This document shows, piece by piece, positions 28,710 to 59,294 of a DNA stretch of 64,000 nucleotides. The notes under the pieces are model-generated. The model had not been told where the DNA came from. It worked only from the letters and a program-made list of their open reading frames with translations, and made no database searches. The stretch covers positions 620,001 to 684,000 of the forward strand of contig NZ_CP019420.1 in the NCBI RefSeq assembly GCF_001984215.1, given 5' to 3'. Within the stretch, counting starts at the first letter, position 1. Each line of letters begins with the position of its first letter. The position numbers and the translations under genes are program-made. Source of the stretch: Mycobacterium sp. MS1601. Lineage in GTDB: Bacteria > Actinomycetota > Actinomycetes > Mycobacteriales > Mycobacteriaceae.

Positions 28710-29834
28710 TCAGCCCGCCAGCGCGTGGGCCCGCTCGGCGACGAACAACTCGGCCGACGCGATGCGGCGCGCCGCTCGGTGCAGCGTGACCGCCTCCAGC
28801 ACACCGTTGTTCATGATGCGCTCGACGTGCAGGACGCCGGCCGGGGTGCCCAGCCGCAGAAGTCCGGACGGCGCGGCGGTGCTCTTGCGCGCCACCACAC
28901 CGCCGGCCACCGTGGACGCGGCGGCCACTGCCACCGCGGAGGTCAACCCGATGGCGGGATGCGGTGCCATCATCGACAGCATCCGGACGGACACGTCGTA
29001 CTCGTCGGCTCGGACCTGCTCCCCGGCGCTGGTTCGGTAGTCCCGCGGGCTGCCCACCACGCCCACCTTGGGAATCGCGTGCCGGATGGGGTCACCCGGT
29101 TTGCTCAAACCCATCCGCAACGAGGACTGCTGACGCAAGGCCACCAGCAGCGAAAGATGATCGGCGACAACCGCATTGCCTTCGGCGCCGGTGAGGCCCA
29201 GATCAGCGGCGTCGAACAGGGCTGCGGGCGCCCCGGCGGTCACCATCGTGGCCGAATAGTCCCGACCCTCCAGACTCACCGTGTCGACGACGTGTCCACT
29301 GGGTAGCAGCTGCGCCGGTTCGCCCGCCAAGCCGGTGAACGTCAGCCCCACCGGGACGCCGAGCGCGTTGGTTCCAGGCACCGCGGCATCGCCGTCGGTC
29401 GGGATGCTTCCACCGGGGGTGGCGATGTCGGCGGTCAGCACCGCGCCGGTGTTCTGGTTACGCATCCGCACCGACGTCACCGTGTCGTCGACGGCCACCA
29501 GTCCGGACTGCAGGGCGTAGAGCCCGATCGCGGTGGCGCAGTTGCCGCAGTTGCTACCCCACTCCACTTGACGGTCGCCGATGGCAACCTGGGCGAACAG
29601 GTAGTCGATGTCGATCCCGGGAAGCTGGGAGCGACGGACGATGGCGGCTTTGGACGTCGTGGAGCTGCCGCCGCCCACGCCGTCGAGCTGACGAGGATCA
29701 CCGGAACCGAACGCCGACGTCAGCAGCTCGTCCAGGCCGCCGGCGGCGTCGATCAGAGGGTCGATGTCCACCGCGTGGAACAGCCAGCATTTGCTGGTGC
29801 CTCCCCGCATCCAGGTGGCGCGAACTGTGAGCAT
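28710..29834 (-). CDS. PrpF-family isomerase (methylaconitate/oxalomesaconate type), copy 1
   Basis: 374-aa diaminopimelate-epimerase-like fold of the PrpF family, whose known members shift the double bond of 2-methylaconitate or tautomerise 4-oxalomesaconate. WMRGGTSKCW at the N-terminus and WGSNCGNCATAIGLYA (catalytic Cys) are the family signatures. It is clearly a paralogue of the gene at 32574 (shared MRGGTSKCWLF, GSGDPxQLDGVGGG, PHPAIGLTSAVAVAAA). Downstream of the carrier gene on the same strand, and four bases from the convergent methyltransferase stop. Confidence 0.9.
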   Translation of the reverse strand: MLTVRATWMRGGTSKCWLFHAVDIDPLIDAAGGLDELLTSAFGSGDPRQLDGVGGGSSTTSKAAIVRRSQLPGIDIDYLFAQVAIGDRQVEWGSNCGNCATAIGLYALQSGLVAVDDTVTSVRMRNQNTGAVLTADIATPGGSIPTDGDAAVPGTNALGVPVGLTFTGLAGEPAQLLPSGHVVDTVSLEGRDYSATMVTAGAPAALFDAADLGLTGAEGNAVVADHLSLLVALRQQSSLRMGLSKPGDPIRHAIPKVGVVGSPRDYRTSAGEQVRADEYDVSVRMLSMMAPHPAIGLTSAVAVAAASTVAGGVVARKSTAAPSGLLRLGTPAGVLHVERIMNNGVLEAVTLHRAARRIASAELFVAERAHALAG

Positions 29835-29947
29835 GGGTGTGCCTTTCCGACGCGACAGGTCCCTGATACCAGGGTGGCCCTCGCAAAGATGAAGAACAAT
29901 CGCGTAAATATGAAGAGGGGTTCAGTTCAGCTAAACCCTGGCGGGTC

Positions 29948-31333
29948 TCACACCATCGAGGGGACGACCACCAGCAGCAGCCAGCACAGCGCGGGCGCCA
30001 CCGCGACCACGATGCCGGCGTTGACCAGCAACTGCCGGTAGAACCGCGGCCGGTCGATGCCCTGAGCGTTGGCCAGCACCAGCGCGCCGTTGGTCGAGAA
30101 CGGTGAGACGTCGACCACGGTGGCGGCGATGGCCAGCGCGGCCACCACACCCACCACGGGCAGGGCACCGGTCTGCAGCAGCGGCAGCGCCATCGGGATG
30201 ATCGCGGCCAGCAGGGCGGTCGACGACGCGAACGCCGAGGTGATGCCGATGACGTAGCAGAGCACGATAGCCACCAGCAGCGGAGCGCCGATGGTGATCG
30301 CCATCTCGGCCAGGTGGTCGATGGTGCCGACCTCTTCGAGCAGCGAGATGTAGGTGACCATGCCCGCCACCAGCAGCACGGTCGACCAGCTGATGCCGGC
30401 GATGGCCTCGTTCTGCTTGGACAGGTCGGTGAAGGCCAGGATGGCGCCGGCGGCGATCGAGATGAAGCTGATCGGCAGGTGGAACACCAGCACGAGCACC
30501 AGCACGGCCGCGATCAGGAACAGGGTCAGTTTCTGCACCACAGTGACCGGGTGCACCTGGACCTCGAGCACGTCGGACTGCACCGGACGGGTCAGCACCT
30601 GCGTCCCGGCGCCTGCCCCACCGGCCGGGCCGGTACCGGGAGCGGACTCGGCACGCACGCCGGTACCGCCGCTGCCGTCGAGGTCATCGGTGAGCTTGGT
30701 GCCGGTTGCGCTGTACTCCAGGTTGCGCATCCGGGCCAGCGCGGCGTAGCCGACCACCGTCAGCACCGAGAGCAGCAGGTTCATGCCGTAGCTGGCGAAG
30801 AACAGGGTCCAGGGGGCGATGGTCAGCCCGCTCTTCTCCACCAGGTCGTGCACCAGCACGCCGGACACCGAGATGGGTGAGAACGCGCCGGCGTGGGCGC
30901 CGTTGATGGTCATGATGCCCATGACCAGCGGGCTCATCTTGGTCCTGGCCGCAAACGACAGAGCGGCGGGGCAGATCAACGCGACTGCCGCGGGGCTGAA
31001 GGTGCCCAACGCGGTCAGCACCGAGGCACAGAAGAAGAACACCCACGGCACCACGGTCACGCGGCCGCGGACGGCGCGGATGCAGGCGTTGACCAGCAGG
31101 TCGATCGTGCCGTTCTTCTTGGCCATGCCGAAGAAGTAGGTGACCCCGATGATGGTCAGCACGATGGAACTGGGGAAGGCGGCAAGGATCTCCTTGTCGT
31201 CATATCCCAGCAGGAAGGCACCGACGCCGAACGCGCCGATGAACCCCAGGATGCCGATGTTGATCGGGAAGAACGTGGCGATGACGAACATCGCCACCAG
31301 CGCGATCAGAGGCAGAATCTCGACAGAAGACAT
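29948..31333 (-). CDS. MatC/SLC13-like dicarboxylate carrier
   Basis: 461 aa, about 11-12 membrane spans in two halves joined by a hydrophilic Gly/Thr-rich loop (about 205-250). TFFPINIGILGFIGAFGVGA and FSPISVSG resemble MatC/ion-transporter superfamily carriers for malonate and other di- or tricarboxylates. The start ATG 31333 is chosen over the upstream codon at 31384 because the first helix follows it directly. It lies downstream of lysR on the same strand, with a LysR-type dyad in the 166-base gap. Likely imports the substrate of the PrpF enzymes. Confidence 0.82.
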   Translation of the reverse strand: MSSVEILPLIALVAMFVIATFFPINIGILGFIGAFGVGAFLLGYDDKEILAAFPSSIVLTIIGVTYFFGMAKKNGTIDLLVNACIRAVRGRVTVVPWVFFFCASVLTALGTFSPAAVALICPAALSFAARTKMSPLVMGIMTINGAHAGAFSPISVSGVLVHDLVEKSGLTIAPWTLFFASYGMNLLLSVLTVVGYAALARMRNLEYSATGTKLTDDLDGSGGTGVRAESAPGTGPAGGAGAGTQVLTRPVQSDVLEVQVHPVTVVQKLTLFLIAAVLVLVLVFHLPISFISIAAGAILAFTDLSKQNEAIAGISWSTVLLVAGMVTYISLLEEVGTIDHLAEMAITIGAPLLVAIVLCYVIGITSAFASSTALLAAIIPMALPLLQTGALPVVGVVAALAIAATVVDVSPFSTNGALVLANAQGIDRPRFYRQLLVNAGIVVAVAPALCWLLLVVVPSMV

Positions 31334-31463
31334 GTGTTCCCTCGGTTCCGGAACGTGGTGCGACGGGAGTTCACCCCTCGCCAATCACACGCCCCGATGA
31401 ATCATTACTCAGATCACAGTAGGAACGGCGTGCCTGTACAACAATGTCGAAAATCTGCAGAGT

Positions 31464-31482
31464 GCTTAACTTGAACTTAAGC
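31464..31482. promoter_or_regulatory. Probable LysR operator ahead of the carrier gene
   Basis: GCTTAA-CTTGAAC-TTAAGC is a 6-bp dyad with a 7-base centre. It contains TTGAACTTAA (31471-31480), a decamer repeated exactly at 32448-32457 on the other side of the lysR gene. Confidence 0.6.
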
Positions 31483-31499
31483 CTTCCCGCCGATGTACG

Positions 31500-32432
31500 T
31501 CAGGACCGGGACCGACGGACCGGCGTGGATTTGCCGTCGTGGCGGTAGGCCACTTCTTCGAAGGTGTCCACCAGCGTCGCCTCGGCGGGGGTGAGCCGGT
31601 GCTCAGCCAGGTGCGCGAGCAGGATGCGCCGTGACGGCGCCCCGCGCAGCGGGATGACCTTGACGTCCTCACGCAGGTTCGACAGCGCCAGCCGCGGGGC
31701 CATGGACACCCCGAGATCCACCGCGACCATGGCCTGCGCCTCCTGGTAGTCGTTGGCCGCGAACGCCACGGTGGGCACAAAACCGGCCTTCTGACAGGCC
31801 TTCTCCAGCGCCGCCCCCACCGGATGGTGATCCTCGCGGGTGATCCACAACTCGTCGGCCAGTTCGGCCATGTCCAGCGACTCCCGATGGGCGAAGCGGT
31901 GATTGACCGAGACCACCAGCGTGGGTGGGTCCACCAGCAATTCCCGCACCACCAGCTCACGATCGGTCACTGGGGCCCACTCGTAATCCCACAGCAGTGA
32001 GAGTTCGACGTCGCCGGTGTCCAACATCGCCCGCAGCGCGGCGAAGCGGGAGCTGCGCACCGTCAGCGTGACGGCGGGGTGCCGGGACTTGTACAGCTTG
32101 ACCACCTGCGGAAGCAGGCTGGATCCCACCGTGGGGAAGGTGCCAAGGCGCACGGTTCCCGACCGCAGACCGGCGATGTCGTCGAGCTCGCTGCGCGCTG
32201 CGTGCAGTTGCGTCTCGATGCGCTCGGCGCGACGGGCCAGCGCCGCTCCGGCCTCGGTCAACCGCACCCCCCGGGCGTGGCGTTCCAGTAGCGGTTGCCC
32301 GGCTTCGGCCTCGAGCTTGGCGATCTGCTGGGAGATGGCCGAGGTGGTGTAGCTGAGGCGATTGGCGGCCGCGGTGAGCGAGCCGGCCCGCACCACGTCG
32401 ACCAGCAGAAGCATTCGTCGTGGGTCCAGCAT
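31500..32432 (-). CDS. LysR-family transcriptional regulator
   Basis: 310 aa. N-terminal HTH (LLLVDVVRAGSLTAAANRLSYTTSAISQQIAKLEAEAG) and a C-terminal periplasmic-binding-like effector domain (about 90-295). LysR proteins bind a pathway metabolite and usually control a divergent gene and themselves. Here the divergent gene is the second prpF with the ABC importer, and the co-directional downstream genes are the carrier and the first prpF. Identical decamers lie on both sides of the gene. Confidence 0.94.
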   Translation of the reverse strand: MLDPRRMLLLVDVVRAGSLTAAANRLSYTTSAISQQIAKLEAEAGQPLLERHARGVRLTEAGAALARRAERIETQLHAARSELDDIAGLRSGTVRLGTFPTVGSSLLPQVVKLYKSRHPAVTLTVRSSRFAALRAMLDTGDVELSLLWDYEWAPVTDRELVVRELLVDPPTLVVSVNHRFAHRESLDMAELADELWITREDHHPVGAALEKACQKAGFVPTVAFAANDYQEAQAMVAVDLGVSMAPRLALSNLREDVKVIPLRGAPSRRILLAHLAEHRLTPAEATLVDTFEEVAYRHDGKSTPVRRSRS

Positions 32433-32447
32433 CGCCCTGCTTTCAGT

Positions 32448-32457
32448 TGAACTTAAT
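32448..32457. promoter_or_regulatory. Probable LysR operator in the lysR-prpF divergent region
   Basis: TTGAACTTAA starts 15 bases upstream of the lysR start codon and repeats the decamer at 31471-31480. It is embedded in AGTTGAACTTAATAG, an AT-rich stretch suited to autoregulation. Confidence 0.6.
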
Positions 32458-32573
32458 AGTTATCGACTTTTCCGAAATTGTACTCGACCCCCACGTGATG
32501 CACGCTGAAACCGCGCCCCAGAGTGAGCGCAGTCACTTTGCTCGATCGAGCCGAAGACAGGAGGGCGGAACTC

Positions 32574-33704
32574 ATGACCAGCTTGTGGGGAACGTGGATG
32601 CGGGGAGGCACCAGCAAGTGCTGGCTGTTCAACGCCGTGGACGTGGACCCGCTGTTGCGTACCACCGGCCTGGACCAAATCCTGGTGTCTGCCTTCGGAT
32701 CCGGTGACCCGCTGCAGCTCGACGGAGTGGGCGGCGGGACGTCGACCACCTCCAAGGCCGCCGTGGTGCGACGCTCGCCGGTCGACGGTGTGGACGTCGA
32801 CTACCTGTTCGCTCAGGTGGCGCTCGGCCAGCGCACCGTCGAATGGGGCAGCAACTGCGGCAACTGCGCCACCGCCATCGGCCTGTACGCGCTGCAAACC
32901 GGCATGGTGGCCATCGACTCCGAGGTCACAGTGGTACGGATGCGCAACCAGAACACCGGTGCCATGTTGTCCGCCGAGATCGCCACCCCCGGTGGCGTCG
33001 TGCCGGCAGACGGCGGCGCCACCGTACCGGGGACGACGGCTCTCGGTGTTCCGGTCGCCCTGACCTTCACCGACGTCGCGCCGAGCCGGGAAGTCCTGCT
33101 GCCCACCGGACGCGCCGTCGATCACCTCGAGGCGGGTGGACACCGGTATGCGGCGACCCTGATCAACGCCGGCGCCCCCGCGGCACTGTTCTACGCCGGC
33201 GACTTCGGCCTGACCGGTTCCGAAGGCACCGACGCACTGGCCGAACGGCTGCCGGTGCTGATCGAACTGCGGCACCGGGCCGCGCTGGCCATGGGGTTGA
33301 CCAAGCCCGGCGAGCCGGTGCAGCACGCGGTCCCCAAGGTCGGCATCGTCGGCCCTGCACTGGACTACACCACCAGCGACGGAAACCCGGTGGCTGTAGG
33401 CGAATACGACGTGGCCGTGCGCATGGTGTCCATGCTGGCACCGCATCCGGCCATCGGCCTGACCTCAGCGGTGGCCGTAGCGGCCGCCGCCACGGTGGAC
33501 GACAGCATCGTCGCCCGCAACGTGGCCACCCGGCGGTCGGCGTCGACGTTGCGGATCGGCACCGCCGCGGGCGTCATCAGCACCACCGCCACGCTGTCCG
33601 ATGATCACCTCCCCCGCGACATCGCCCTGCACCGCGCCGCCCGGCGCATCGCTCGCGCCGAGTTGTTCCTGGCCGATCCCGCCCGCGCCCTGGCCGCTTC
33701 CTGA
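32574..33704 (+). CDS. PrpF-family isomerase, copy 2
   Basis: 376 aa, paralogue of the gene at 28710. It keeps MRGGTSKCW, WGSNCGNCATAIGLYA (catalytic Cys), the MRNQNTGAML strand and PHPAIGLTSAVAVAAAA. ATG 32574 is preferred to the upstream 32523 codon because GGAGGG (32560-32565) sits eight bases before it. First gene of a unit with an ABC importer (37 bases to the ATPase). Two PrpF copies in one cluster suggest either two related substrates or two steps of isomerisation. Confidence 0.9.
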   Translation: MTSLWGTWMRGGTSKCWLFNAVDVDPLLRTTGLDQILVSAFGSGDPLQLDGVGGGTSTTSKAAVVRRSPVDGVDVDYLFAQVALGQRTVEWGSNCGNCATAIGLYALQTGMVAIDSEVTVVRMRNQNTGAMLSAEIATPGGVVPADGGATVPGTTALGVPVALTFTDVAPSREVLLPTGRAVDHLEAGGHRYAATLINAGAPAALFYAGDFGLTGSEGTDALAERLPVLIELRHRAALAMGLTKPGEPVQHAVPKVGIVGPALDYTTSDGNPVAVGEYDVAVRMVSMLAPHPAIGLTSAVAVAAAATVDDSIVARNVATRRSASTLRIGTAAGVISTTATLSDDHLPRDIALHRAARRIARAELFLADPARALAAS

Positions 33705-33741
33705 GCCCCGGTCCTGTTCACCCACTCCACAGAAGGACATC

Positions 33742-34854
33742 ATGAAAGTCACCATCGAAAACCTGACACTGGCCTACAACGGCAACACCGTGGTCCGCGA
33801 TCTCGACCTCGACATCGCCGACGGCGAATCCCTGGTACTGCTCGGGCAATCCGGCTGCGGCAAGACCAGCACCATGCGCTGCGTCGCGGGGCTGGAGACC
33901 CCCAGCATCGGCAAGATCACCATCGGCGACCGCGTGGTCCACGACAGCACGACCGGCCGCTCCGTCCCGCCCCACAAGCGCAACGTCGGCATGGTGTTCC
34001 AGTCGTACGCCGTGTGGCCGCATCGCACCGTGGCCCAGAACGTCGGTTTCGCCCTGAAGATGCAAAAAGTGGCCAAGTCCGAGATGGAACAGCGGGTGAG
34101 CGAGGCTCTTTCCCTGGTGGGCCTTGGGCACCTGGCCGACCGGGGCGCCAGTCAGCTCTCCGGCGGCCAGATGCAGCGGGTTGCGCTGGCCCGCAGCCTG
34201 GTCATGCGGCCCAGCGTCCTGATGCTCGACGAGCCGCTGTCCAACCTCGATGCCCGGCTGCGCGAGCGGCTGCGGATGGAACTGCGCGAACTGCAGCTGC
34301 GGCTGGGACTGACCACCGTCTACGTCACCCACGACCAGGTCGAAGCGTTCGCCCTGGCCGACCGGATCGCCCTCATGCAGAAGGGCCGCATCGTCCAGAT
34401 CGGTTCTCCGGAGCAGATTTACAAGAACCCCTCCTGCGCCTCGATCGCCGAATTCCTCGGCATCGGCAACATTTTCGCGGCCTCGGCCACCTCGTCGGGC
34501 TCGGGCTATCTGCTCAACGACCACCCCGCCATCACGGTGGCCACCGACGACTCCCCCGCCGCCGACGGACCCATGGTGATCTGCCTGCGCCCGGAGGACC
34601 TGTTGGTGACCGGCATCTCCGAACCCGCACCGCAGGGTCAACACTGGACCGGCCGTGTCGAGGTCGCCAGCTACCAGGGTGCCTCGATCCGCTACCGCGT
34701 GACACTGGACAACGGACCCGAGATCGAAGCCGTGGCCACCGGCAACGGCAGCCCGGTGCTGGGCATCGGCGAGTCCGCGGTCGTGACCGCCCGCCCCGGC
34801 GCCGCCCAATTGCTGCTCGACGACCGCACCGAATCTGCGGTGGTGACCGCATGA
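33742..34854 (+). CDS. ABC importer ATP-binding protein, FbpC/PotA type
   Basis: 370 aa. Walker A GQSGCGKTS, Q-loop region VFQSYAVWPHRTV, signature LSGGQMQRVALARSL, Walker B LMLDEPLSNLDARLR, H-loop VTHDQ, then a C-terminal TOBE-like domain. Powers import of the ligand captured by the lipoprotein two genes downstream. The stop overlaps the permease start (ATGA). Confidence 0.93.
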   Translation: MKVTIENLTLAYNGNTVVRDLDLDIADGESLVLLGQSGCGKTSTMRCVAGLETPSIGKITIGDRVVHDSTTGRSVPPHKRNVGMVFQSYAVWPHRTVAQNVGFALKMQKVAKSEMEQRVSEALSLVGLGHLADRGASQLSGGQMQRVALARSLVMRPSVLMLDEPLSNLDARLRERLRMELRELQLRLGLTTVYVTHDQVEAFALADRIALMQKGRIVQIGSPEQIYKNPSCASIAEFLGIGNIFAASATSSGSGYLLNDHPAITVATDDSPAADGPMVICLRPEDLLVTGISEPAPQGQHWTGRVEVASYQGASIRYRVTLDNGPEIEAVATGNGSPVLGIGESAVVTARPGAAQLLLDDRTESAVVTA

Positions 34855-36614
34855 GCGCCCCCACCGCGACACCGCCTCTGCCACAGACCAAGACAGCGCC
34901 GAGCACCGCGCCGCCCCGCCGCAGGCGACTGCGGCTGCGGGGCACCACGCCCGTCCTGGTCCAGCTGGCGGTGCTCACCGTCATCGTCTTGTGCCCGATG
35001 TTCTTCATCCTCGCCGGAGCCTTCAGCGAGAACACCGAACGCGACAACCTGTTCGACTTCGGCAGTTTCACCTTCGACAACTTTGCCGTGCTGGGTTCGG
35101 GCACCGCACAGACCGCGCTGCTGAACTCCGCCGCCGTCGGCATCGGCTCGTCGGCGGTGGCGCTGATCATCGGATGTCTGTTGGCGTTCCTCGCAGCCCG
35201 CACCGACATCCCGGGCCGCAAACTGATCTACGGCATCGCCATCATGCCGCTGTTCCTGCCCGCCCTGGTCGGCGCACTGGCGTGGGCATTGCTGGCCGGC
35301 CCCGCCACCGGGTATGTGAACCTGGCGTTCGGTGCGCTCGGGGTGCCCCACCTGATCGACATCTACAGCTTCACCGGCATGATCTTCGTCCTCGGGTTGT
35401 ACTACGCCCCCTACCCGTTCCTCATGGTGCACTCGGCGCTGTCGTTGATGAACCCCGACCTGGAGGACGCGGCCAGCCTGCACGGCGCCCCGGTCCGCCG
35501 CATGCTGCGTGAGGTCACCTTCCCACTGGTGATGCCCGCCGTGCTGGGCTCGGCGATCCTGGTGTTCGCACTGACCGTGGAGAACTTCCCAGTCGCCCAG
35601 GTGATCGGCGTCCCGGGCGGGGTGGACACCTTGCCCACCCTGATCTACCGCCTGATGAACGCCTCACCGGCCCGCTCCAACGACGCCGCCGCGCTTGCCG
35701 TGGTGCTCACCGTTCTGCTGGTGATCGTCGTGGCCTTCCAACAGCGGGCCATGGGCGGCAAGGAATACACCACCGTCAGCGGCAAGGGTGTACGCGCTCG
35801 TCAGGTGGCGTTGCGCGGCTGGCGCATACCGTCGGCCGTATTCGCCTGGAGCTACTTCGTCCTGGCCGTGCTGCTGCCGGTCCTCGCGCTGATCATCGCC
35901 GCCATGCAGACCAGCCCCTACGTCGCCGACCTGAGCCAGCTCGGTCAGCCCGGGGCCCTGTCGCTGTGGAACATGGGTCAGACCCTGCAGAGCAGCGACT
36001 TCCACCAGGTAGTCATCAACAGCGTCGTGGTCGGGGTGGCCACTGCCGGCATCGGCACCGCGCTGTGCTTCGCGCTGGCCTACACCCGCTACCGGACCAA
36101 GGCGCCGGGACGCAAACTCCTCGAATACGTCGCCATGCTTCCCCTGGCGGTACCCGCGATCGTCCTGGGCCTCGGCCTGCTGTGGACCTGGCTGGCGCTG
36201 CCGATCCCCGTGTACGGCACCCTGGCGGTGTTGGTCATCGCCTTCGTTGCGGTGTTCCTGCCGCAGGGCTACCGCGGAGTGTCGGCGTCGATCATCCAGC
36301 TGGACAAGGATCTCGAAGACAGCGCCGTGATGCTCGGAGCCCGCAGGCACCGCGCCATCACCTTCGTCACCGCGCCCCTGCTGCGGGTGGGGTTGTCCTC
36401 GACCTTCCTGCTGCTGATGATGCTCGCGATGCGCGAACTGACCGCCGCGCTGTTCCTGTTCACCTCCGACACCCGGCTGCTGTCCATCGCGATCTTCGAC
36501 GCCTACGACAACGGATCATTCCAATCCGCGGCCGAACTGAGCCTGCTCTACTGCGCCGTTATCGGCGTGCTCGCCGTGCTCGCCCGCCGCTTCGGCTCCA
36601 AGGAGATGTCATGA
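34851..36614 (+). CDS. Fused ABC importer permease, FbpB type (two membrane halves)
   Basis: 587 aa with about 12 spans, that is, two binding-protein-dependent permease modules in one chain, as in ferric/2-aminoethylphosphonate-type FbpB permeases. Each half has an EAA-like coupling loop: DLEDAASLHGAPVRRMLREVTFPLV and DLEDSAVMLGARRHRAITFVTAPLL. ATG at 34851 overlaps the ATPase stop, and its own stop overlaps the next ATG (ATGA), so the operon is tightly coupled. Confidence 0.92.
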   Translation: MSAPTATPPLPQTKTAPSTAPPRRRRLRLRGTTPVLVQLAVLTVIVLCPMFFILAGAFSENTERDNLFDFGSFTFDNFAVLGSGTAQTALLNSAAVGIGSSAVALIIGCLLAFLAARTDIPGRKLIYGIAIMPLFLPALVGALAWALLAGPATGYVNLAFGALGVPHLIDIYSFTGMIFVLGLYYAPYPFLMVHSALSLMNPDLEDAASLHGAPVRRMLREVTFPLVMPAVLGSAILVFALTVENFPVAQVIGVPGGVDTLPTLIYRLMNASPARSNDAAALAVVLTVLLVIVVAFQQRAMGGKEYTTVSGKGVRARQVALRGWRIPSAVFAWSYFVLAVLLPVLALIIAAMQTSPYVADLSQLGQPGALSLWNMGQTLQSSDFHQVVINSVVVGVATAGIGTALCFALAYTRYRTKAPGRKLLEYVAMLPLAVPAIVLGLGLLWTWLALPIPVYGTLAVLVIAFVAVFLPQGYRGVSASIIQLDKDLEDSAVMLGARRHRAITFVTAPLLRVGLSSTFLLLMMLAMRELTAALFLFTSDTRLLSIAIFDAYDNGSFQSAAELSLLYCAVIGVLAVLARRFGSKEMS

Positions 36615-37723
36615 GAAAGCTGTCCGCCCGCCTGGCGCTCGGGTTTGTCACCGCCGCAACACTTCTGGCCGCCTGCTCGCCGCCACCGCCGACGCCGGAC
36701 CTGGCCCGGCCGGCCGAATCGATCGAACGGGACACCTCTTTGGTGATCAACGGCGAGCAGATCGCCGATCCCGAGCTGTGGTCGGCGGCCAAGGAGGAAG
36801 GCCACATCACCCTCTACAGCGGCTACACCGCCGACAGTGAGGCCACCGTCCTGGAGCAGTTCGAGGCCGACACCGGTCTCGAGGTCAAGCTGATCCGCCT
36901 GACCCCCAACCGGCTCTACGAGCGCATCGTCGCCGAGCACGGCGCGGGCAAGCTGAACGCCGACGTGGTGCGCATCTCCGACGCCGGGTTCGTCTCGGGG
37001 CTGAGCAGGCGCGGCGTCTTCCAGCCCTACACCCCGCCCACTGCGACGAACCTGCGTGACGATGTGGTCTTCGACAACGGCAACTACTACCGCACCTTCG
37101 ACCCCATCTACACGTTCGGGTACAACACCGCACTGGTGGATCCCGAGGACGCCCCCAAGCGTTGGCAGGACTTGCTGGAGCCCCAGTGGGCCGGCAAGCT
37201 GGGCATCGCCCAGGCCGGTGCCGGCGGCAGCGCACTGGCCCTGACCCGATTCCAGCGCGATGTGCTGGGCGACGACTACCTGCGCGCCTACGCCAAGGAA
37301 GCCCGGGTGTTCGACTCCCTGGGAGCCGAACTCGACAGCCTGGCCCGAGGTGAGATCGACGCCGGCACCGTGGTGGTCAGCAGCGTCAACATCGCGGCCA
37401 ACGAGAACGCCCCTGTCACCTTCGTGGTTCCCGAAGAAGGCGTCACCGCCTACGACTACTACACCGGCGTGGCCTCGACGGCCACCAACGTGGCCGCCGC
37501 GAAGGTCTTCCTCAACTGGAACCTCTCGCAGCGGGGTCAGAACGTGCTGCGCGACATCGGGGAATACTCTGTGCGACAAGATGTTCCGGCGCCCGTGGTG
37601 CGCGGGGTTCAGCTGCCCGACTTCGACGACCCCCGGGTGCACCGCATCACCCCGGCCGAGTCCATGGAGTGGGCCGAACAGGATCAGCGGTCCTGGAACG
37701 CGATGTTCGGCTACAACGAGTAA
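36611..37723 (+). CDS. Solute-binding lipoprotein of the Fbp-type ABC importer
   Basis: 370 aa. Lipoprotein signal peptide with lipobox LAAC (Cys22). The remainder is a family 1 periplasmic-binding protein related to FbpA/AfuA: ITLYSGYT start, FQPYTPP, YTFGYNTALV, and a C-terminal EYSVRQDV like the EYPV motif of ferric-binding proteins. AYDYYTGVA carries a Tyr pair where FbpA proteins bind iron, but the ligand may instead be an organic acid or its metal complex; context with PrpF genes favours that. Followed by a terminator. Confidence 0.9.
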   Translation: MRKLSARLALGFVTAATLLAACSPPPPTPDLARPAESIERDTSLVINGEQIADPELWSAAKEEGHITLYSGYTADSEATVLEQFEADTGLEVKLIRLTPNRLYERIVAEHGAGKLNADVVRISDAGFVSGLSRRGVFQPYTPPTATNLRDDVVFDNGNYYRTFDPIYTFGYNTALVDPEDAPKRWQDLLEPQWAGKLGIAQAGAGGSALALTRFQRDVLGDDYLRAYAKEARVFDSLGAELDSLARGEIDAGTVVVSSVNIAANENAPVTFVVPEEGVTAYDYYTGVASTATNVAAAKVFLNWNLSQRGQNVLRDIGEYSVRQDVPAPVVRGVQLPDFDDPRVHRITPAESMEWAEQDQRSWNAMFGYNE

Positions 37724-49901: not shown

Positions 49902-51377
49902 CTAGGACGAGCGACCGTTGACGCGGCGCGGTACGCGCCACGGGTTCGCATCGATGAGGGCAGGGGGCAAATGCGCTTCGGGTACCGACTGGTAGGTCAG
50001 CGGTCGTAACCAACGCCGAATCGCACTGGCTCCGACCGATGTATGAATAGAGTTGGTGGCCGGATATGGGCCTCCGTGGTGCTGGGCCCAGCTGACCGCT
50101 ACGCCGGTGGGCCACCCGTTCCAAATGACGCGCCCCGACGTGCGTGCCACTGCGGCAAGCAGCGCTGCGGCATCGGCGTCATCGACGGTCCCGTGGACGG
50201 TTGATGTCAATGTCCCCGGCAGGACGGCCAACGTCGCGTGGAGTTCAGCGATGGAGGTGTAGGTGACGATCAAGCCGAACGGCCCGAAGCACTCTTGGGC
50301 GAGCACCGCTGCATCGTCCTGCAGGGCCCGAGCATTCGTCATGGCGATCACCGGGCGCACTGCCCTGTCATCGCGGCCATCTTGCTCGGGCCACAACATA
50401 GGTCTGACATCTTTGTGTTCCATGATCGACCGAGACACTTCGAGGAAGGATCGTCGTATTCCACTGTGCAACAGCGTAAAAGGATTATCCTCTAGGTTTT
50501 CACGGACGAGCCACTGAATTGAACTCGTCTCGGGGACAAAGAGAATGCCGGGTTTGGTGCAGAACTGCCCGGCCCCGAGGAACACCGACTCGAGGAACTG
50601 GCCTGCGATGTGTCCGGGTCGTTCCCGGGCCGCGGCAGGCGTCACGAACACCGGGTTGGTGCTGCCGAACTCGCCGTAGAACGGGATGGGGTTAGCCCGA
50701 CCGGCCGCTAGATCAGCCAGTGCCCGGCCGCCCGATGTCGAACCAGTGAATCCGACAGCCGTGATGCGCTGATCTGTGACGAGTTGACGACCGACGTCGA
50801 GACCGTGCAGCACTCCAAAGGTGCCGGCCGGGGCGCCGCCGGCGCGAAGCCCCTCGTCGATCACCTGCGCGTAGGCGGTAGTCAGTCGAGGTTGGGCAGG
50901 ATGTGCCTTCGCGATGACCGGACAACCGGCAGCCAGGGCCGACGCGGTGTCACCGCCACCAAGTCCGAACGCAAATGGGAAGTTGCTGGCCCCGAACACC
51001 GCGACGGGACCGCTGGGTACCAAGATGCGGCGTAGATCGGGGCGGGGAACCGGAAGCAGGTCGGCGTCGGCGGTATCGATCGTGGCCTCCAGCCAGGAAC
51101 CCTCCGCGACAACCTCTGCGAACATTCGGAGTTGCATCGTAGTGCGTGCAACCTCGCCGTCCAGGCGCGCCTGCGGAAGTGAACTATCGGCGGCCGCCAG
51201 CGGCACCAGTGCGCCGCGGTGCGCGTCGAGCGCGTCGGCTACGGACCGCAGAACCTGTGCTCGCTGACTCAGGTCCATACTCGCCAAGGGCGCCGCCGCG
51301 GTCGCGGCGGCGCAGAGAACTTGTTCATAATCCTGTCCGCCGATATCTGAAATTATCTGTGTAGCAGTCACTTCCAT
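49902..51377 (-). CDS. Aldehyde dehydrogenase, 2-oxoglutarate-semialdehyde (2,5-dioxovalerate) type
   Basis: 491-aa NADP-type ALDH. FGASNFPFAFGLGGGDTASALAAGCPV is the cofactor/substrate segment characteristic of the ketoglutaric-semialdehyde group, FYGEFGSTNP holds the catalytic Glu and GAGQFCTKPG the catalytic Cys. Its family usually finishes non-phosphorylative pentose or sugar-acid pathways by making 2-oxoglutarate. It reads away from the CoA-transferase operon across a shared 164-base control region. Confidence 0.88.
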   Translation of the reverse strand: MEVTATQIISDIGGQDYEQVLCAAATAAAPLASMDLSQRAQVLRSVADALDAHRGALVPLAAADSSLPQARLDGEVARTTMQLRMFAEVVAEGSWLEATIDTADADLLPVPRPDLRRILVPSGPVAVFGASNFPFAFGLGGGDTASALAAGCPVIAKAHPAQPRLTTAYAQVIDEGLRAGGAPAGTFGVLHGLDVGRQLVTDQRITAVGFTGSTSGGRALADLAAGRANPIPFYGEFGSTNPVFVTPAAARERPGHIAGQFLESVFLGAGQFCTKPGILFVPETSSIQWLVRENLEDNPFTLLHSGIRRSFLEVSRSIMEHKDVRPMLWPEQDGRDDRAVRPVIAMTNARALQDDAAVLAQECFGPFGLIVTYTSIAELHATLAVLPGTLTSTVHGTVDDADAAALLAAVARTSGRVIWNGWPTGVAVSWAQHHGGPYPATNSIHTSVGASAIRRWLRPLTYQSVPEAHLPPALIDANPWRVPRRVNGRSS

Positions 51378-51458
51378 TGTCCTTCCTGTCGAGTTCCGGG
51401 CTCCGCAGCCGGAGGCTCTGACAGCTCAGTCTGTCGGAGAACTGCGGTGACGCCATAC

Positions 51459-51470
51459 CTCCATATGGAG
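51459..51470. promoter_or_regulatory. Operator dyad between the aldehyde dehydrogenase and CoA-transferase genes
   Basis: CTCCATATGGAG is a perfect 12-bp palindrome followed by ATTGTGTG (51471-51478). The same arrangement, CTCCA-N2-TGGAG then TTGTGTG, occurs at 59207-59228 before the transporter gene. Confidence 0.6.
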
Positions 51471-51541
51471 ATTGTGTGAGTGCGGTCACGAGCGTCAGGA
51501 TTGGCGTCGCAACAGGAACCGAGCGACTCTGGAGGACGCTG

Positions 51542-52675
51542 ATGACCACAAATAGTGGTCCACTTACCGGGGTTCGGGTACTGGACATGACCCGTCTGGC
51601 GCCCGGACCGTATGCGAGCATGCTGCTCGCGGATCTCGGTGCGGAAGTGATCGCCATCGGCGGCGGTAGATCCGGGCTTCCGGTGCCAGCGCTGTCGCGG
51701 GGAAAGGAGTTTATCTCCCTGGACCTCAAGACCGAAGCCGGCCGCCGGTCCCTGCACGGGCTCGTCTCCAGAGCCGATGTCTTCCTGGAAGGATTCCGGC
51801 CCGGAGTCGCGGCCAAGTTGGGTGCCGGCTATGCAGAATTATCCGCTCTCAACCCCGGGCTCGTGTACTGCAGTGTCACCGGTTACGGACAGGACGGACC
51901 GATGGCACAGCGTGCCGGCCATGACATCAACTACCTCGCGGTCGCAGGTGCGCTCGGCACCTTCGGGCCGGCGGATCAACCGCCCACCCCACCCCTGAAC
52001 TTGGTCGCCGATTTCGCCGGTGGAGGGTTGCTGTCGGCATTCGGCATACTGGGCGCTCTCTTCGACAGGACTCGAACTGGCAGGGGGCGCTACATCGACT
52101 CCGCCATGGTGGACGGGGTGCTGTCCATGATGGGAATGAATTTCGCCGATTGGCAGACGCCGACCCTGGCAGCACGCGGGCATGGCGTACTGGCCGGCTC
52201 AGTGCCTTTCTACCGTTGCTATCGCTGCGCCGACGGTCGCTACGTCGCGGTGGGGGCGCTCGAGGTGGCTTTCTTCGAACGGTTGTGGACCACCCTCGAC
52301 CTCGGTGAGGTGCCACACCATTATGACGAGTCCACCTGGGAGCTCATCGAGAAGTCGCTGACCGCGGCGTTCGAAACGAAGACAAGGGCTCAGTGGACCG
52401 CGGTGTTCGCTGAAGTGGACGCGTGCGTCACACCGGTGCTCGAACCACACGAACTGGCAACCTTTGACCAGATTGTGGCCAGGGATCCACACTTCGCTCT
52501 GGATTCGGTGCCGGTTGTTCCCGTGTTCTCCGGGGGACCCGCAAGGCGCGACACCGACACCCGCGGCAAGACCGAAGAAGTACTGCGCCGCAACGGGATT
52601 CCTGAGGACGTAATCACCCGTGCCGTTGCCTGCACCCCATCGGTTGTCACAGGCCTGAGCTGGCCTCCCCTGTGA
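51542..52675 (+). CDS. CaiB/BaiF-family CoA-transferase or alpha-methylacyl-CoA racemase
   Basis: 377 aa. LTGVRVLDMTRLAPGPYASMLLADLGAEVI is the family III N-terminus. AGHDINYLAVAGAL (His) and NLVADFAGGGL (Asp) are closer to the racemase branch than to formyl-CoA transferases. ATG 51542 has GGAGG six bases upstream; an earlier frame at 51476 lacks one. First gene of a long operon. Confidence 0.87.
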   Translation: MTTNSGPLTGVRVLDMTRLAPGPYASMLLADLGAEVIAIGGGRSGLPVPALSRGKEFISLDLKTEAGRRSLHGLVSRADVFLEGFRPGVAAKLGAGYAELSALNPGLVYCSVTGYGQDGPMAQRAGHDINYLAVAGALGTFGPADQPPTPPLNLVADFAGGGLLSAFGILGALFDRTRTGRGRYIDSAMVDGVLSMMGMNFADWQTPTLAARGHGVLAGSVPFYRCYRCADGRYVAVGALEVAFFERLWTTLDLGEVPHHYDESTWELIEKSLTAAFETKTRAQWTAVFAEVDACVTPVLEPHELATFDQIVARDPHFALDSVPVVPVFSGGPARRDTDTRGKTEEVLRRNGIPEDVITRAVACTPSVVTGLSWPPL

Positions 52676-52720
52676 ACCACCGCGTTTCGCCATAACCAAT
52701 TCGCAGACAAGGAGCAGTAC

Positions 52721-53839
52721 ATGCGCACCGAACATCACGAATTTCGCGCCAGCATACGCAAACTCGCACAGGCCAAGATCGCGCCGCATTCCGCCGACGT
52801 GGACGACAAGGAACGTTTTCCCGCCGAAGCGTGGTCGGCTCTGTGCAGCAGTGAACTTCCCGGGCTGGCACATCCCGAGAGTCTCGGCGGAAGTGGTGCC
52901 GATCTTCTCTCGCAGGTCATCGCGGTAGAAGAAGTCGCAGCATCGTGTGCCAGCTCGGCGCTGGTCCTGCTGGTCAACTGGGCAGGTACGTCCACGGTAT
53001 TGAGCCAGGGATCTGACGAGCTCAAGCAACTGGTGATACCCGGGGTGGCCTCAGGCGCCGCCGGAGCTGCGTGGTGCATGACGGAACCGCTCGTGGGATC
53101 GGACCTGTCAGCAATCTCCACTACAGCAGTGCAGCAGGGTTCGGACTGGATAATCAACGGACAGAAGCGATTTGTCAGCAACGCGCCCTGGGCCGACTGG
53201 TACGCGGTCCTGGCCAAGACCGGCGAGAAGAGCCTCGGTGTCTTCATCGTGCACAAGGATGACAATGGCGTCAGCTTCGGAGCACCCGAGAAGAAGATGG
53301 GGATGCGCGGAAGCCCGACAACTGACGTGGTTCTCGACGACTGCCGACTCCCCGCGGTTCGTGTTGTCAACGATCCGCACCAAGGGCTGACCTACATATC
53401 TGCGGAATTGAACGTCAGTCGTACCCTCATCGCAGCGCAGGCGCTGGGAATCGCTCAGGGAGCCTTCGACGCTGCTGTTGCATACACGACCGACCGTGAG
53501 CAGTTCGGGCAGCCCATCGCGCGCTTCCAGATGTTGCGGGGCATGGTCGCCGACATGGCAATCAAGATCGAATCGGCCCGTTCGCTGCTCTATGACGCGG
53601 TCCGGCTCATCGAGGCCGGTGAGCCGGCTGCCCGGGCGAAGGCAGCAATGGCGAAGTTGCTCTGCAGTGACAATGCGATGTCGGTGGCCACTGATGCGGT
53701 ACAGCTGCACGGCGGGTACGGCTTCGTACGTGACTACCCGGTCGAGCGAATGATGCGCGACGCCAAGATCACTCAGATCTACGAGGGCACCAACCAGATC
53801 CAACGGCTTCTCGTTGCCAAGTCGGTGTACGGAAAGTAG
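52721..53839 (+). CDS. Acyl-CoA dehydrogenase
   Basis: 372-aa flavoprotein. MTEPLVGSDLSAIST is the FAD-binding loop, GMRGSPTTDVVLDDCRLP the middle beta-domain, QFGQPIARFQMLRGMVADM the C-domain motif, and VQLHGGYGFVRDYPVERMMRDAKITQIYEGTNQIQ the end. Glu in IYEGTNQ fits the catalytic base of short/medium/branched-chain enzymes. Removes two hydrogens alpha-beta to the thioester; actual substrate unknown. AGGAG precedes the ATG. Confidence 0.93.
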   Translation: MRTEHHEFRASIRKLAQAKIAPHSADVDDKERFPAEAWSALCSSELPGLAHPESLGGSGADLLSQVIAVEEVAASCASSALVLLVNWAGTSTVLSQGSDELKQLVIPGVASGAAGAAWCMTEPLVGSDLSAISTTAVQQGSDWIINGQKRFVSNAPWADWYAVLAKTGEKSLGVFIVHKDDNGVSFGAPEKKMGMRGSPTTDVVLDDCRLPAVRVVNDPHQGLTYISAELNVSRTLIAAQALGIAQGAFDAAVAYTTDREQFGQPIARFQMLRGMVADMAIKIESARSLLYDAVRLIEAGEPAARAKAAMAKLLCSDNAMSVATDAVQLHGGYGFVRDYPVERMMRDAKITQIYEGTNQIQRLLVAKSVYGK

Positions 53840-53845
53840 GTCATT

Positions 53846-55042
53846 GTGCAGCACTCTGGATCGCAAGCCCTCAGCGGTGTGCGCGTACTCGATCTGGGCG
53901 AGATCATGCAAGGCCCCGTCGCCGCGCAGGTGCTCGGCGACCTCGGGGCCGAGGTGATCAAGGTCGAGCGGGGCGCCACGGGCGACATGTTGCGAGGCCT
54001 TGATCGCGACTCGCTGCAGGCGCGTCGTCCCAGCGCGTACTTCGCTGCGGTCAACCGAAACAAGCGCAGCATCGCGCTGAACCTGAAATCCGATGAGGGG
54101 AAGGAGATTCTGCATCAGCTATTGGTAGATACGGACGTCCTCATCCACAGTTATCGAACCGCGGCGGTACAGCGGCTGGGGTTGACCTACGACGACCTGC
54201 ACGAGCGCTATCCCAGACTCGTCTACGGAACCGCAACCGGATTCGGGGAAACCGGACCATACGCCCACAAGGCCGGACAGGACATGCTCGCGCAAGCGCT
54301 GAGCGGGATGGCGAGGTCGTGCGGCGACCCGTCGATCTCCGCCTACGTGCACCCGGTACCGATGGTCGATTACGCGTCCGGAATGGCCCTGGCTCAGGGG
54401 ATTCTGGCGGCATTGTTCGAGCGCGAGCGCTCCGGTCGCGGCCAGAAGGTCAGCGTGAACCTCTTCGACACGGCGATGTCGCTGCAGACTCTCGAGAGTT
54501 CGACCTTGCTCATGAACGAGCGCGAAACCAATTGGGTAACTGATTGGTACAGCGGTATCTTCGAGACGACAGACGGTATGCTCCTGGTGCTGGGGCTGTT
54601 TCGGGAAAACCCCCTGCAGCTTGCGTCCAAAGCGTTGGGCATCGACGATCTGTCCATCCAGCCCGCGTTCGGCTCACCGCAACTCCAGGCCGACAACAAG
54701 GAAGCCGCCAATGCGGTGCTGCGTCCACTTGTCGCGAAGCTGAGCACAGCAGAGGCGGCGGAACGCTTCGATGCGGTTGATCTCCTGTGCGCGCCCCTGC
54801 TCACTCTGAAAGAGGCACTTGATCATCCCCAAACCCGGCACAACGGCGTGTTGGTCGATGTTGATGTCGAAGGTGTCCGGACGACCCGGCTGATGGGCAA
54901 TCCGGTTTCCCTGTCACGTACACCCACCCGGGTGCGCCGGGGCGCCCCGAAAGTCGGTGAGCATTCAGAGGAGATCCTGCACGAGCTCGGGCTGTCACCG
55001 TCGCAGGTTCAGGATTTGCGGAGCAAGGAAGTGATTCGATGA
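53846..55042 (+). CDS. CaiB/BaiF-family CoA-transferase, second copy
   Basis: 398-aa family III CoA-transferase. LSGVRVLDLGEIMQGPVAAQVLGDLGAEVIKVE, RNKRSIALNLKSDEGKEIL, and GYGQ-equivalent TGFGETGPYAHKAGQDMLAQALSGM with Asp in the active-site position of true transferases. Likely loads CoA from succinyl- or another acyl-CoA onto a carboxylate. GTG start six bases after the dehydrogenase; its stop overlaps the next ATG. Confidence 0.9.
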   Translation: MQHSGSQALSGVRVLDLGEIMQGPVAAQVLGDLGAEVIKVERGATGDMLRGLDRDSLQARRPSAYFAAVNRNKRSIALNLKSDEGKEILHQLLVDTDVLIHSYRTAAVQRLGLTYDDLHERYPRLVYGTATGFGETGPYAHKAGQDMLAQALSGMARSCGDPSISAYVHPVPMVDYASGMALAQGILAALFERERSGRGQKVSVNLFDTAMSLQTLESSTLLMNERETNWVTDWYSGIFETTDGMLLVLGLFRENPLQLASKALGIDDLSIQPAFGSPQLQADNKEAANAVLRPLVAKLSTAEAAERFDAVDLLCAPLLTLKEALDHPQTRHNGVLVDVDVEGVRTTRLMGNPVSLSRTPTRVRRGAPKVGEHSEEILHELGLSPSQVQDLRSKEVIR

Positions 55043-56184
55043 CCAACACGACAGCAATCGACCCGACATCCGGCACGGCCACTGCCATGGTTCTCGAAGA
55101 GTTCGGGCATGCCGTGACGGCGCGTACGTTTCCGTTTACTCAGCCCGCCGCCGGCGCTGTCGTTGTGGAGGTGACACACGCAGGAGTCTGTGGAACGGAC
55201 CTCCACCTGCAGCAGGGTCGACTGACCATTCCGGTACCGGTGATCCTCGGCCACGAGGCAGTGGGCCGAGTGCGTGCCCTCGGCGAGGGAGTCACCAGGG
55301 ATGCGCGTGGCGAGCAGCTCCGCGTTGGGGACGCGGTGTCATGGGCTTCCAATATTCCGTGCGGACAGTGCTTTTACTGCCAGGAGGAACAGGAACCGTC
55401 GCTGTGTGAGACCCGCAAGGTATACGGAATCAACCAGTCGTCGGACGTTTGGCCGCACCTCTCGGGGGGCTGGTCCGAGCAGATCTACCTCCAGCCCGGC
55501 TCTACGATCGTCCGAATCCCGTCCTCAGTGACCCCGCAACAGGTGATCGCCCTTGGGTGCGCCGGACCGACGGCGGTTCACGCGGTCAACGGCATCGCGA
55601 GACCGGAGCATGGCGATACCGTGGTGATACAGGGCAGCGGGCCGGTTGGATTGGCCTGCGCCATGTTCGCCACACTGGCCGGTGCGGCCAAGGTGATCAT
55701 CGTCGGCGGACCCTCCCGTCGCCTTGAAGTCGCGCGGGCGGCCGGCATCGGCGACGTCCACATCGACATCTTTGCTGAGCCGGATCGAGCCGCCCGTCTC
55801 GACCGAGTTCTCGCGCACACGACGGGCGGCCGCGGTGCCGACCTGGTTGTCGAGGCAGCCGGCGTCCCGACAGCAGTGTCGGAAGGCATCGACATCACCC
55901 GGCGCGGCGGCAAGTATGTCGTCGTCGGACAGTACACCGACCACGGCACCACTCCGATCAATCCTCACTACATCACGAAAAAGCAGCTTCAAGTGCTGGG
56001 CAGCTGGGCGTTCTCCCCCCGTAACCACCTCGAATACGTCGAGGCGCTGCCCCTACTGGTCACCCGGTTCGACCTTGCCTCGATGGTCACCGAGTACCCG
56101 CTCGAGCAGGCCGAAAAGGCCATGGGCGACATGCGGGAAGGACGCTCCCTCAAGTCGGTACTCGTGACGGCGGGCCGTTCATGA
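55039..56184 (+). CDS. Zinc-dependent alcohol dehydrogenase
   Basis: 381-aa medium-chain dehydrogenase. HAGVCGTDLHLQQG and GHEAVGRV give the catalytic-zinc Cys and His; CGQCFYC followed by a later Cys (SLCET) is the structural zinc site; VVIQGSGPVGLACAMFA is the NAD-binding Rossmann turn. Oxidises an alcohol or polyol. Overlaps both neighbours by four bases. Confidence 0.92.
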   Translation: MTNTTAIDPTSGTATAMVLEEFGHAVTARTFPFTQPAAGAVVVEVTHAGVCGTDLHLQQGRLTIPVPVILGHEAVGRVRALGEGVTRDARGEQLRVGDAVSWASNIPCGQCFYCQEEQEPSLCETRKVYGINQSSDVWPHLSGGWSEQIYLQPGSTIVRIPSSVTPQQVIALGCAGPTAVHAVNGIARPEHGDTVVIQGSGPVGLACAMFATLAGAAKVIIVGGPSRRLEVARAAGIGDVHIDIFAEPDRAARLDRVLAHTTGGRGADLVVEAAGVPTAVSEGIDITRRGGKYVVVGQYTDHGTTPINPHYITKKQLQVLGSWAFSPRNHLEYVEALPLLVTRFDLASMVTEYPLEQAEKAMGDMREGRSLKSVLVTAGRS

Positions 56185-57305: not shown

Positions 57306-57354
57306 CCCAGTTGACATGAACGGATGTTCAGTGCCGGGGAATCGAGGAACGCCG

Positions 57355-59171: not shown

Positions 59172-59206
59172 ACGCATTTCGTCAGACGACGGTTCAAAGT
59201 ACACCT

Positions 59207-59218
59207 CTCCACCTGGAG
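59207..59218. promoter_or_regulatory. Operator dyad ahead of the MHS transporter gene
   Basis: CTCCACCTGGAG (TCTCCA/TGGAGA with a CC centre if extended by one base each side) is followed by TTGTGTG at 59222-59228. It repeats the layout at 51459-51478. Confidence 0.6.
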
Positions 59219-59294
59219 ATGTTGTGTGGCCCGGATCACTCATATATTGCAAGCCACAGGAATCGCTGTGCACTCGTGGCAACGGAGGCCATAT

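What the first reader, a model, noticed from the sequence alone, without database searches (positions are those of the whole stretch)
28710..37723. Undescribed-looking gene cluster: two PrpF isomerases, a MatC-like carrier, an Fbp-type ABC importer and one LysR regulator
Both arms of a LysR-centred divergon have their own importer and their own PrpF paralogue. PrpF enzymes act on unsaturated tricarboxylates such as methylaconitate, and no prpBCD or gallate-pathway genes are present here. A carrier plus an Fbp-type importer suggests uptake of a free acid and perhaps of its metal chelate. The M. tuberculosis interval at this position (between the Rv3342 and Rv3355c orthologues) is filled by unrelated genes.
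Basis: partly seen in the sequence, partly recalled or inferred. Interest (0 to 1): 0.7.

Follow-up and report, generated by a model that had tools for sequence, protein, structure and literature searches.

The report
Twin importer–isomerase cassette, probably for trans-aconitate
A mycobacterium carries two joined gene cassettes, each pairing a different uptake pump with an enzyme that shifts a double bond, apparently to feed an unusual acid (most likely trans-aconitate, common in plants) into central metabolism.

Summary
The cluster is real and conserved: PrpF1< carrier< LysR< >PrpF2>ATPase>permease>binding lipoprotein. Both PrpFs (63% identical) keep the catalytic Lys and Cys of the Shewanella enzyme. 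Relatives show two separable modules: A (LysR | MatC/CitMHS carrier–PrpF) and B (LysR | PrpF–ABC importer). Two Nocardia loci have B without A, 21 fetched loci have A without B, six have both in tandem, five mycobacterial genomes have them joined under one LysR. That history explains the two PrpFs. An operator-like motif lies before PrpF1, carrier and PrpF2, with no other exact match in the 6.8-Mb genome. Most likely function: import of an unsaturated tricarboxylate and isomerisation to a TCA intermediate, best guess trans- to cis-aconitate. It works like Bacillus velezensis TarRAB (LysR, PrpF-type aconitate isomerase, importer) with other importers. The binding protein's nearest relative of known structure binds Mg-citrate, but only 1 of 6 ligand-site residues is kept; a metal-binding fold (IbpS) scores close behind. 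The substrate is inferred, not shown. In seven loci (one being R. opacus B4) module A also has CoA-transferase and/or CoA-ester-lyase genes, which leaves itaconate- or citramalate-type acids open.

The parts
28710..29834 (-). PrpF1, allylic isomerase of module A
   Evidence: PF04303 277 bits; 91% identical in G083
29896..29908 (+). operator-like motif before PrpF1
   Evidence: exact match to ACAATNNCGNAAA; at most 1 mismatch at the same place in 5 of 5 mycobacterial loci
29948..31333 (-). MatC_N/CitMHS (SLC13-type) secondary carrier of module A
   Evidence: PF07158 166 bits, PF03600 103 bits; R. opacus relative annotated SLC13 family permease
31441..31453 (+). operator-like motif before the carrier
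   Evidence: exact match; exact in only 2 of 5 mycobacterial loci
31500..32432 (-). LysR regulator (the module-B type)
   Evidence: PF00126/PF03466; 92-97% identical in the four other joined clusters, 71-80% in eight module-B loci outside them, 40-59% in module-A regulators
32469..32481 (-). operator-like motif between LysR and PrpF2
   Evidence: exact in 5 of 5 mycobacterial loci and in 8 of 8 further module-B loci that carry PrpF
32574..33704 (+). PrpF2, allylic isomerase of module B
   Evidence: PF04303 270 bits; K61 and C95 align with SoPrpF K73 and C107
33742..34854 (+). ABC ATPase (PotA/FbpC type, TOBE_2)
34851..36614 (+). fused two-domain ABC permease (FbpB/PhnU2-like)
36611..37723 (+). 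substrate-binding lipoprotein

Best explanation
The cluster is one inducible uptake-and-isomerise regulon made from two once-independent modules. Module A is a secondary carrier plus PrpF1; module B is an ABC importer plus PrpF2. The LysR protein senses the substrate and, from operator-like sites before PrpF2, the carrier and PrpF1, turns on both arms. The importers bring in an unsaturated tricarboxylate, most likely trans-aconitate, the carrier at higher and the ABC system at trace concentrations. The PrpF enzymes shift its double bond to give cis-aconitate, which aconitase takes into the TCA cycle. Shown by computation: gene content, family membership, catalytic residues, modularity, motif. 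Inferred: substrate, direction, affinity split, inducer, order of events.
For: A transporter plus an isomerase and nothing else must yield a central metabolite; among PrpF reactions known to me only trans- to cis-aconitate does so directly. Aconitase-family genes are in the genome. In 30 loci compared, only three further gene families recur in three or more loci, together in 7 loci. Published precedent: B. velezensis TarR-TarA-TarB (LysR, PrpF-type aconitate isomerase, importer) and Ustilago Adi1, a PrpF-type aconitate isomerase. Catalytic Lys and Cys kept. The binding protein's nearest relative of known structure by sequence profile (E 1.5e-59, next 3.3e-44) and by fold is the citrate-binding MctA. 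Of five annotated plasmid PrpF neighbourhoods, one holds a tricarballylate dehydrogenase and two a tripartite tricarboxylate transporter. The motif has 3 exact matches in the 6.8-Mb genome, all in the cluster; 0.05 were expected in the window.
Confidence: 0.5

Rival explanations
1. The substrate is a C5 branched dicarboxylate or its hydroxy acid (itaconate, citraconate, mesaconate, citramalate). PrpF interconverts isomers and CoA activation plus lyase cleavage gives acetyl-CoA and pyruvate; in this genome those later steps are encoded elsewhere.
For: R. opacus pROB01 has carrier-PrpF-CoA ester lyase-LysR-CoA transferase-CoA ester lyase. The two lyases of L062 score best against RipC/Ccl of itaconate degradation (148 and 103 bits, cut-off 375); its transferase is scored by formyl-CoA transferase (196.5) and mesaconate CoA-transferase (190) models, both below cut-off. 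The PrpF-family enzyme Mii is reported to act on itaconate (passage).
Against: 23 of 30 loci lack these genes; the nearest relative of the transferase in this genome is only 39% identical. Whether the lyases have orthologues here was not tested.
Confidence: 0.2
2. The two arms serve two different unsaturated or hydroxy acids, each PrpF specific for its own importer's ligand, with one inducer common to both.
For: PrpF1 and PrpF2 are 63% identical and lie in separate well-supported sets; carrier and ABC importer are unrelated; the carrier promoter motif is weakly conserved.
Against: In this genome all three promoters share the motif and only one LysR is present in the cluster, which fits one inducer and one substrate better.
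Confidence: 0.17
3. Module B is a ferric or metal-chelate importer, with PrpF acting on the chelator.
Against: Val at the MctA Tyr221 position and Thr at Asp28. Ferric ATPase model 293 bits against a cut-off of 496. Of nine distant family relatives of the transporter, neighbours were scanned in four, and all four lie near enzymes of carboxylic acids or acyl-CoA.
Confidence: 0.08
4. The PrpFs are accessory to a 2-methylcitrate pathway (methylaconitate isomerisation).
For: TIGR02334 is the second-best named model for both.
Against: 211 and 198 bits against a cut-off of 440.55; no acnD in the cluster; PrpD-family genes exist elsewhere in the genome.
Confidence: 0.04

Closest known systems
TarRAB trans-aconitate assimilation system, Bacillus velezensis FZB42 (PMC11495376; abstract, passages and sections 25, 27, 28, 31 seen)
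   Same: LysR regulator next to and divergent from a PrpF-superfamily isomerase gene, plus an importer; nothing else dedicated to reach the TCA cycle
   Different: TarB is an MFS protein and the TarR site is TTATAA; here the importers are a MatC/CitMHS carrier and an ABC system, with two PrpFs and another motif
PrpF of Shewanella oneidensis, 2-methylaconitate isomerase (PMC5690661; abstract, passages and sections 23, 30 seen)
   Same: family, catalytic Lys73 and Cys107 kept
   Different: no acnD in the cluster and far below the family cut-off
4-oxalomesaconate tautomerase (GalD/LigU)
   Same: best named model for both PrpFs (236 and 234 bits)
   Different: cut-off is 440; no gallate-pathway genes in the cluster
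Adi1, aconitate isomerase of Ustilago maydis (PMC4720413; passages seen)
   Same: PrpF-family enzyme acting on aconitate
   Different: a fungal biosynthetic enzyme working from cis to trans; its sequence was not compared here
MctA, metal-citrate-binding protein (PDB 7f6e series; entry titles only)
   Different: 1 of 6 mutated ligand-site residues kept (Ser79 as Ser123)
FbpABC ferric importers
   Same: ATPase, fused permease and binding protein architecture
   Different: Val at the MctA Tyr221 position; different neighbours

Membership tests
TarRAB-type trans-aconitate system | PrpF-superfamily isomerase gene with a divergent neighbouring LysR gene | tested here: met
   PrpF2 and LysR are divergent; in several module-A-only relatives (such as L026-L028, L069-L071) LysR is divergent from carrier-PrpF
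TarRAB-type trans-aconitate system | MFS importer TarB | tested here: not met
   carrier is MatC_N/CitMHS
TarRAB-type trans-aconitate system | TTATAA operator elements | tested here: not met
   no TTATAA seen by eye in the LysR-PrpF2 intergenic sequence printed
TarRAB-type trans-aconitate system | aconitate isomerase activity | not testable with these tools
   needs enzyme assay
PrpF superfamily | PF04303 over curated cut-off; catalytic Lys and Cys | tested here: met
   277 and 270 bits, cut-off 27; Lys and Cys aligned
2-methylaconitate isomerase PrpF (TIGR02334) | score over 440.55 | tested here: not met
   211.3 and 197.7
4-oxalomesaconate tautomerase (NF033377) | score over 440 | tested here: not met
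   236.3 and 233.9
FbpA-type ferric-binding protein | twin tyrosine iron ligands (recalled) | tested here: inconclusive
   positions aligned with MctA Tyr221 and the next residue are V259 and N260; no Tyr among the residues printed there (33 and 35 of the 35 nearest rows of 44); FbpA itself was not aligned directly
MctA citrate-binding protein | ligand-site residues S26, D28, S79, S164, T199, Y221 (mutants named in PDB titles) | tested here: not met
   G71, T73, S123, G203, L237, V259: 1 of 6 kept
2-aminoethylphosphonate importer (PhnSTUV/PhnU2) | NCBIfam scores over cut-off | tested here: not met
   permease 164.7 of 593, binding protein 66.4 of 310, ATPase 321.5 of 457.7

The most novel reading that the evidence does not exclude
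Module B is the first ABC-type importer dedicated to trans-aconitate, and module A an SLC13/MatC-type one. Actinobacteria assembled a two-importer system by joining two self-sufficient importer-isomerase cassettes and discarding one of the two LysR regulators. More broadly, the Fbp-like transporter is a plug-in carboxylate importer whose first-step enzyme is exchanged between operons (PrpF, Ldh_2 hydroxyacid dehydrogenase, benzoylformate decarboxylase, MmgE/PrpD, CoA-transferase).
Probability: 0.4. Interest if true: 0.6.

Novelty: new variant of a known kind. Interest (0 to 1): 0.45.

Why it matters
The 2024 trans-aconitate paper says that more transporters of this acid are urgently needed, because its own search could use only the one MFS importer sequence. 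This cluster offers two candidate importers of other families in actinobacteria and explains why such clusters carry two PrpF genes. It also suggests that some transporters that databases name 'iron(III) transport system' (names) may be carboxylate importers, which is directly testable.

Tried and rejected
Recent local duplication of prpF: rejected; PrpF1 and PrpF2 each have closer relatives in other species than each other. A single origin of module-B PrpFs could be neither shown nor excluded: the Mycobacterium set (5 rows), the Rhodococcus-type set (3) and the Nocardia set (2) are separate, with unresolved order among them.

Horizontal island by composition: not supported; GC is 0.67-0.68 across the cluster and on both sides of it. 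The cluster does change place: of 12 fetched loci tested for the window's flanking genes, only L024 keeps them.

Not done or not conclusive. TarA and TbrA sequences were not obtained, so no tree with proven aconitate isomerases was made. Searches for an MctA paper found none; MctA and IbpS are known here only from PDB titles and recall. Paper searches for PrpF with aconitate isomerase, with Mycobacterium and LysR, with itaconate and citraconate, and for aconitate isomerase with Mycobacterium gave no description of this cluster in what I saw of them; PMC9875883 was seen in passages only. In 396 genomes of the phylum the binding protein matched in 3 at E<=1e-60 (own genome included) and PrpF1 in 4 at E<=1e-70 (own genome included). 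150 genomes of the genus of G551 gave no binding-protein match at E<=1e-60, with no positive control in that set. Binding-protein relatives at 45-65% in Streptomyces, Nakamurella, Pseudonocardia and others were not examined for neighbours.

Limits of the counts. From I fetched 20 loci in 18 of 28 matching genomes, aimed at the binding protein, added further genomes. Of the 18 loci, 12 distant ones (L088-L099) were only scanned by tblastn. 21 module-A-only loci come from 19 genomes; 'only' refers to the stretch fetched. L079, L113 and L114 were outgroups in the tree, and L079 was left out of the 20 loci. Distant PrpF loci L029-L032 (32-39% identity) were not followed. The 30-locus comparison rests on my own codon-usage gene caller, which split the binding protein of L082.

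After the one check I lowered one rival from 0.20 to 0.17 and raised the metal rival from 0.06 to 0.08 because of the IbpS row.
Full report
What is there. Seven genes occupy 28710-37723: PrpF1, carrier and LysR on the minus strand, PrpF2, ATPase, fused permease and a substrate-binding lipoprotein on the plus strand. Pfam confirms each family. NCBIfam finds no named enzyme above cut-off for either PrpF: 236 and 234 bits for 4-oxalomesaconate tautomerase (cut-off 440) and 211 and 198 for methylaconitate isomerase (cut-off 440.55). They are the only two PrpF matches in the 6.8-Mb genome and are 63% identical. In PrpF2, K61 and C95 align with Lys73 and Cys107 of Shewanella PrpF, which that enzyme needs for growth on propionate, although Cys107 variants kept some function; PrpF1 has the same motifs.

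Modularity. tblastn of the window proteins on fetched relatives shows two units. Module A is a LysR gene with carrier and PrpF, found without B in 21 fetched loci of 19 genomes, four of them of the same genus. Module B is a LysR gene divergent from PrpF-ATPase-permease-binding protein, found without A in two Nocardia loci (L086, L087). Five mycobacterial genomes (window, G083, G120, M. neoaurum ATCC 25795, a groundwater MAG) hold both with a single LysR, which is the module-B type: 92-97% to the window's in the other four, 71-80% in the eight tandem or Nocardia loci, against 40-59% for module-A regulators. So the two PrpFs most simply reflect the joining of two self-sufficient cassettes, with LysR-A apparently lost. 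A tree of 41 PrpFs agrees that both copies predate these species; it does not resolve whether module-B PrpFs have one origin. Of 12 loci tested, only L024 (G083) keeps the window's flanking genes.

Distribution. In 148 genomes of the genus, 17 have a PrpF match and three (own genome, G083, G120) have the close pair. In 301 genomes of the family, 28 have a PrpF at E<=1e-80 and 15 have the binding protein at E<=1e-60, at 16 places. Of the seven places at 71% or more, six are next to a PrpF; the seventh (G409, L141) has an Ldh_2 dehydrogenase gene where PrpF would be. None of the nine more distant places (35-44%) has a PrpF in the fetched stretch. I scanned neighbours in four of those nine: benzoylformate decarboxylase (L138), MmgE/PrpD with an acyl-CoA dehydrogenase (L142), MmgE/PrpD with a CoA ligase (L143), thiolase and acyl-CoA dehydrogenases (L139); and in another family CoA-transferase III with Ldh_2 (L116). 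This points to a carboxylate-importer family rather than an iron family.

Regulation. Aligning the three intergenic regions of five mycobacterial clusters gave a motif, ACAATNNCGNAAA. It has three exact matches in the window (0.05 expected from shuffles) and the same three, no more, in the whole genome (reversed-pattern control: 1). They lie before PrpF1, carrier and PrpF2, in the same orientation relative to these genes. The motif was read from these regions, so their matching is not independent; its absence elsewhere is. In loci not used to derive it, it is exact between LysR and PrpF in 8 of 8 module-B loci. Before PrpF in module-A-only loci it has at most one mismatch in 9 of 20, against 8 of 800 random stretches. 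Against the reading: before the carrier it is exact in only 2 of 5 mycobacterial loci and reaches one mismatch or fewer in 0 of 20 module-A-only loci, and it is absent from L141. Co-regulation is thus well supported for the two PrpF promoters and weaker for the carrier.

Substrate. A transporter plus an isomerase alone must lead to a central metabolite. The published tar system of B. velezensis does this with trans-aconitate: LysR-type TarR, PrpF-type isomerase TarA, importer TarB (PMC11495376). Ustilago Adi1, also PrpF-type, isomerises aconitate (PMC4720413). The genome has aconitase-family matches, but one is a 491-aa frame that may be LeuC and the other is split over two overlapping frames in this assembly. 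It also has PrpD-family genes and a trans-aconitate methyltransferase-like gene below the model's cut-off. Of five annotated plasmid PrpF neighbourhoods that I viewed, one holds tricarballylate dehydrogenase TcuA, two a tripartite tricarboxylate transporter, one the carrier with CoA enzymes (R. opacus) and one no organic-acid partner or importer next to PrpF. The main counter-evidence is that seven of 30 loci, in genus groups g24 and g28 (g24 includes R. opacus B4), add CoA-transferase III and/or HpcH-type lyases to module A; these resemble itaconate and mesaconate enzymes below cut-off. This genome has no close copy of the transferase (best 39%); the lyases were not searched. I therefore give trans-aconitate about even odds, and the class 'unsaturated or related polycarboxylate' considerably more.

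Verdict. A real, probably co-regulated, modular uptake-and-isomerise system; a new variant of a known kind, with two candidate importers of families that I did not see described for this acid in the papers found.

Noticed in passing
window 49905-60611: Lower-GC stretch (0.62-0.63) with an apparent catabolic gene run: two CoA-transferase III genes, acyl-CoA dehydrogenase, zinc alcohol dehydrogenase, an ORF without Pfam match (56181-57302), GAF histidine kinase, LuxR-type response regulator and an MFS transporter; a partial aldehyde dehydrogenase match on the opposite strand.
   Followed up: partly
window 32523-32536 and the same place in L024, L025, L082, L084: Inverted element GTGA-N6-TCAC between LysR and PrpF2, present in 5 of 5 aligned loci beside the main motif; unexplained.
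   Followed up: no
L118 (Rhodococcus opacus B4 plasmid pROB01) 5422-12192: Module A extended by two CoA ester lyases, a CoA transferase and a second LysR: a possible complete pathway for a branched acid.
   Followed up: partly
L141 4866-11129: Module-B transporter (72% binding protein) with an Ldh_2 dehydrogenase in PrpF's place and an NADP-isocitrate dehydrogenase gene about 45 bp downstream.
   Followed up: partly
L116 6127-13466: Distant relative of the ABC importer followed on the same strand by CoA-transferase III, a tartronate-semialdehyde-reductase-like protein and Ldh_2.
   Followed up: no
G000:C1:5929176-5930782: Aconitase-family match split over two overlapping reading frames in this assembly; not examined further.
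   Followed up: no
G000:C1:3240348-3241106: Trans-aconitate methyltransferase-like gene, 225 bits against a cut-off of 297.
   Followed up: no
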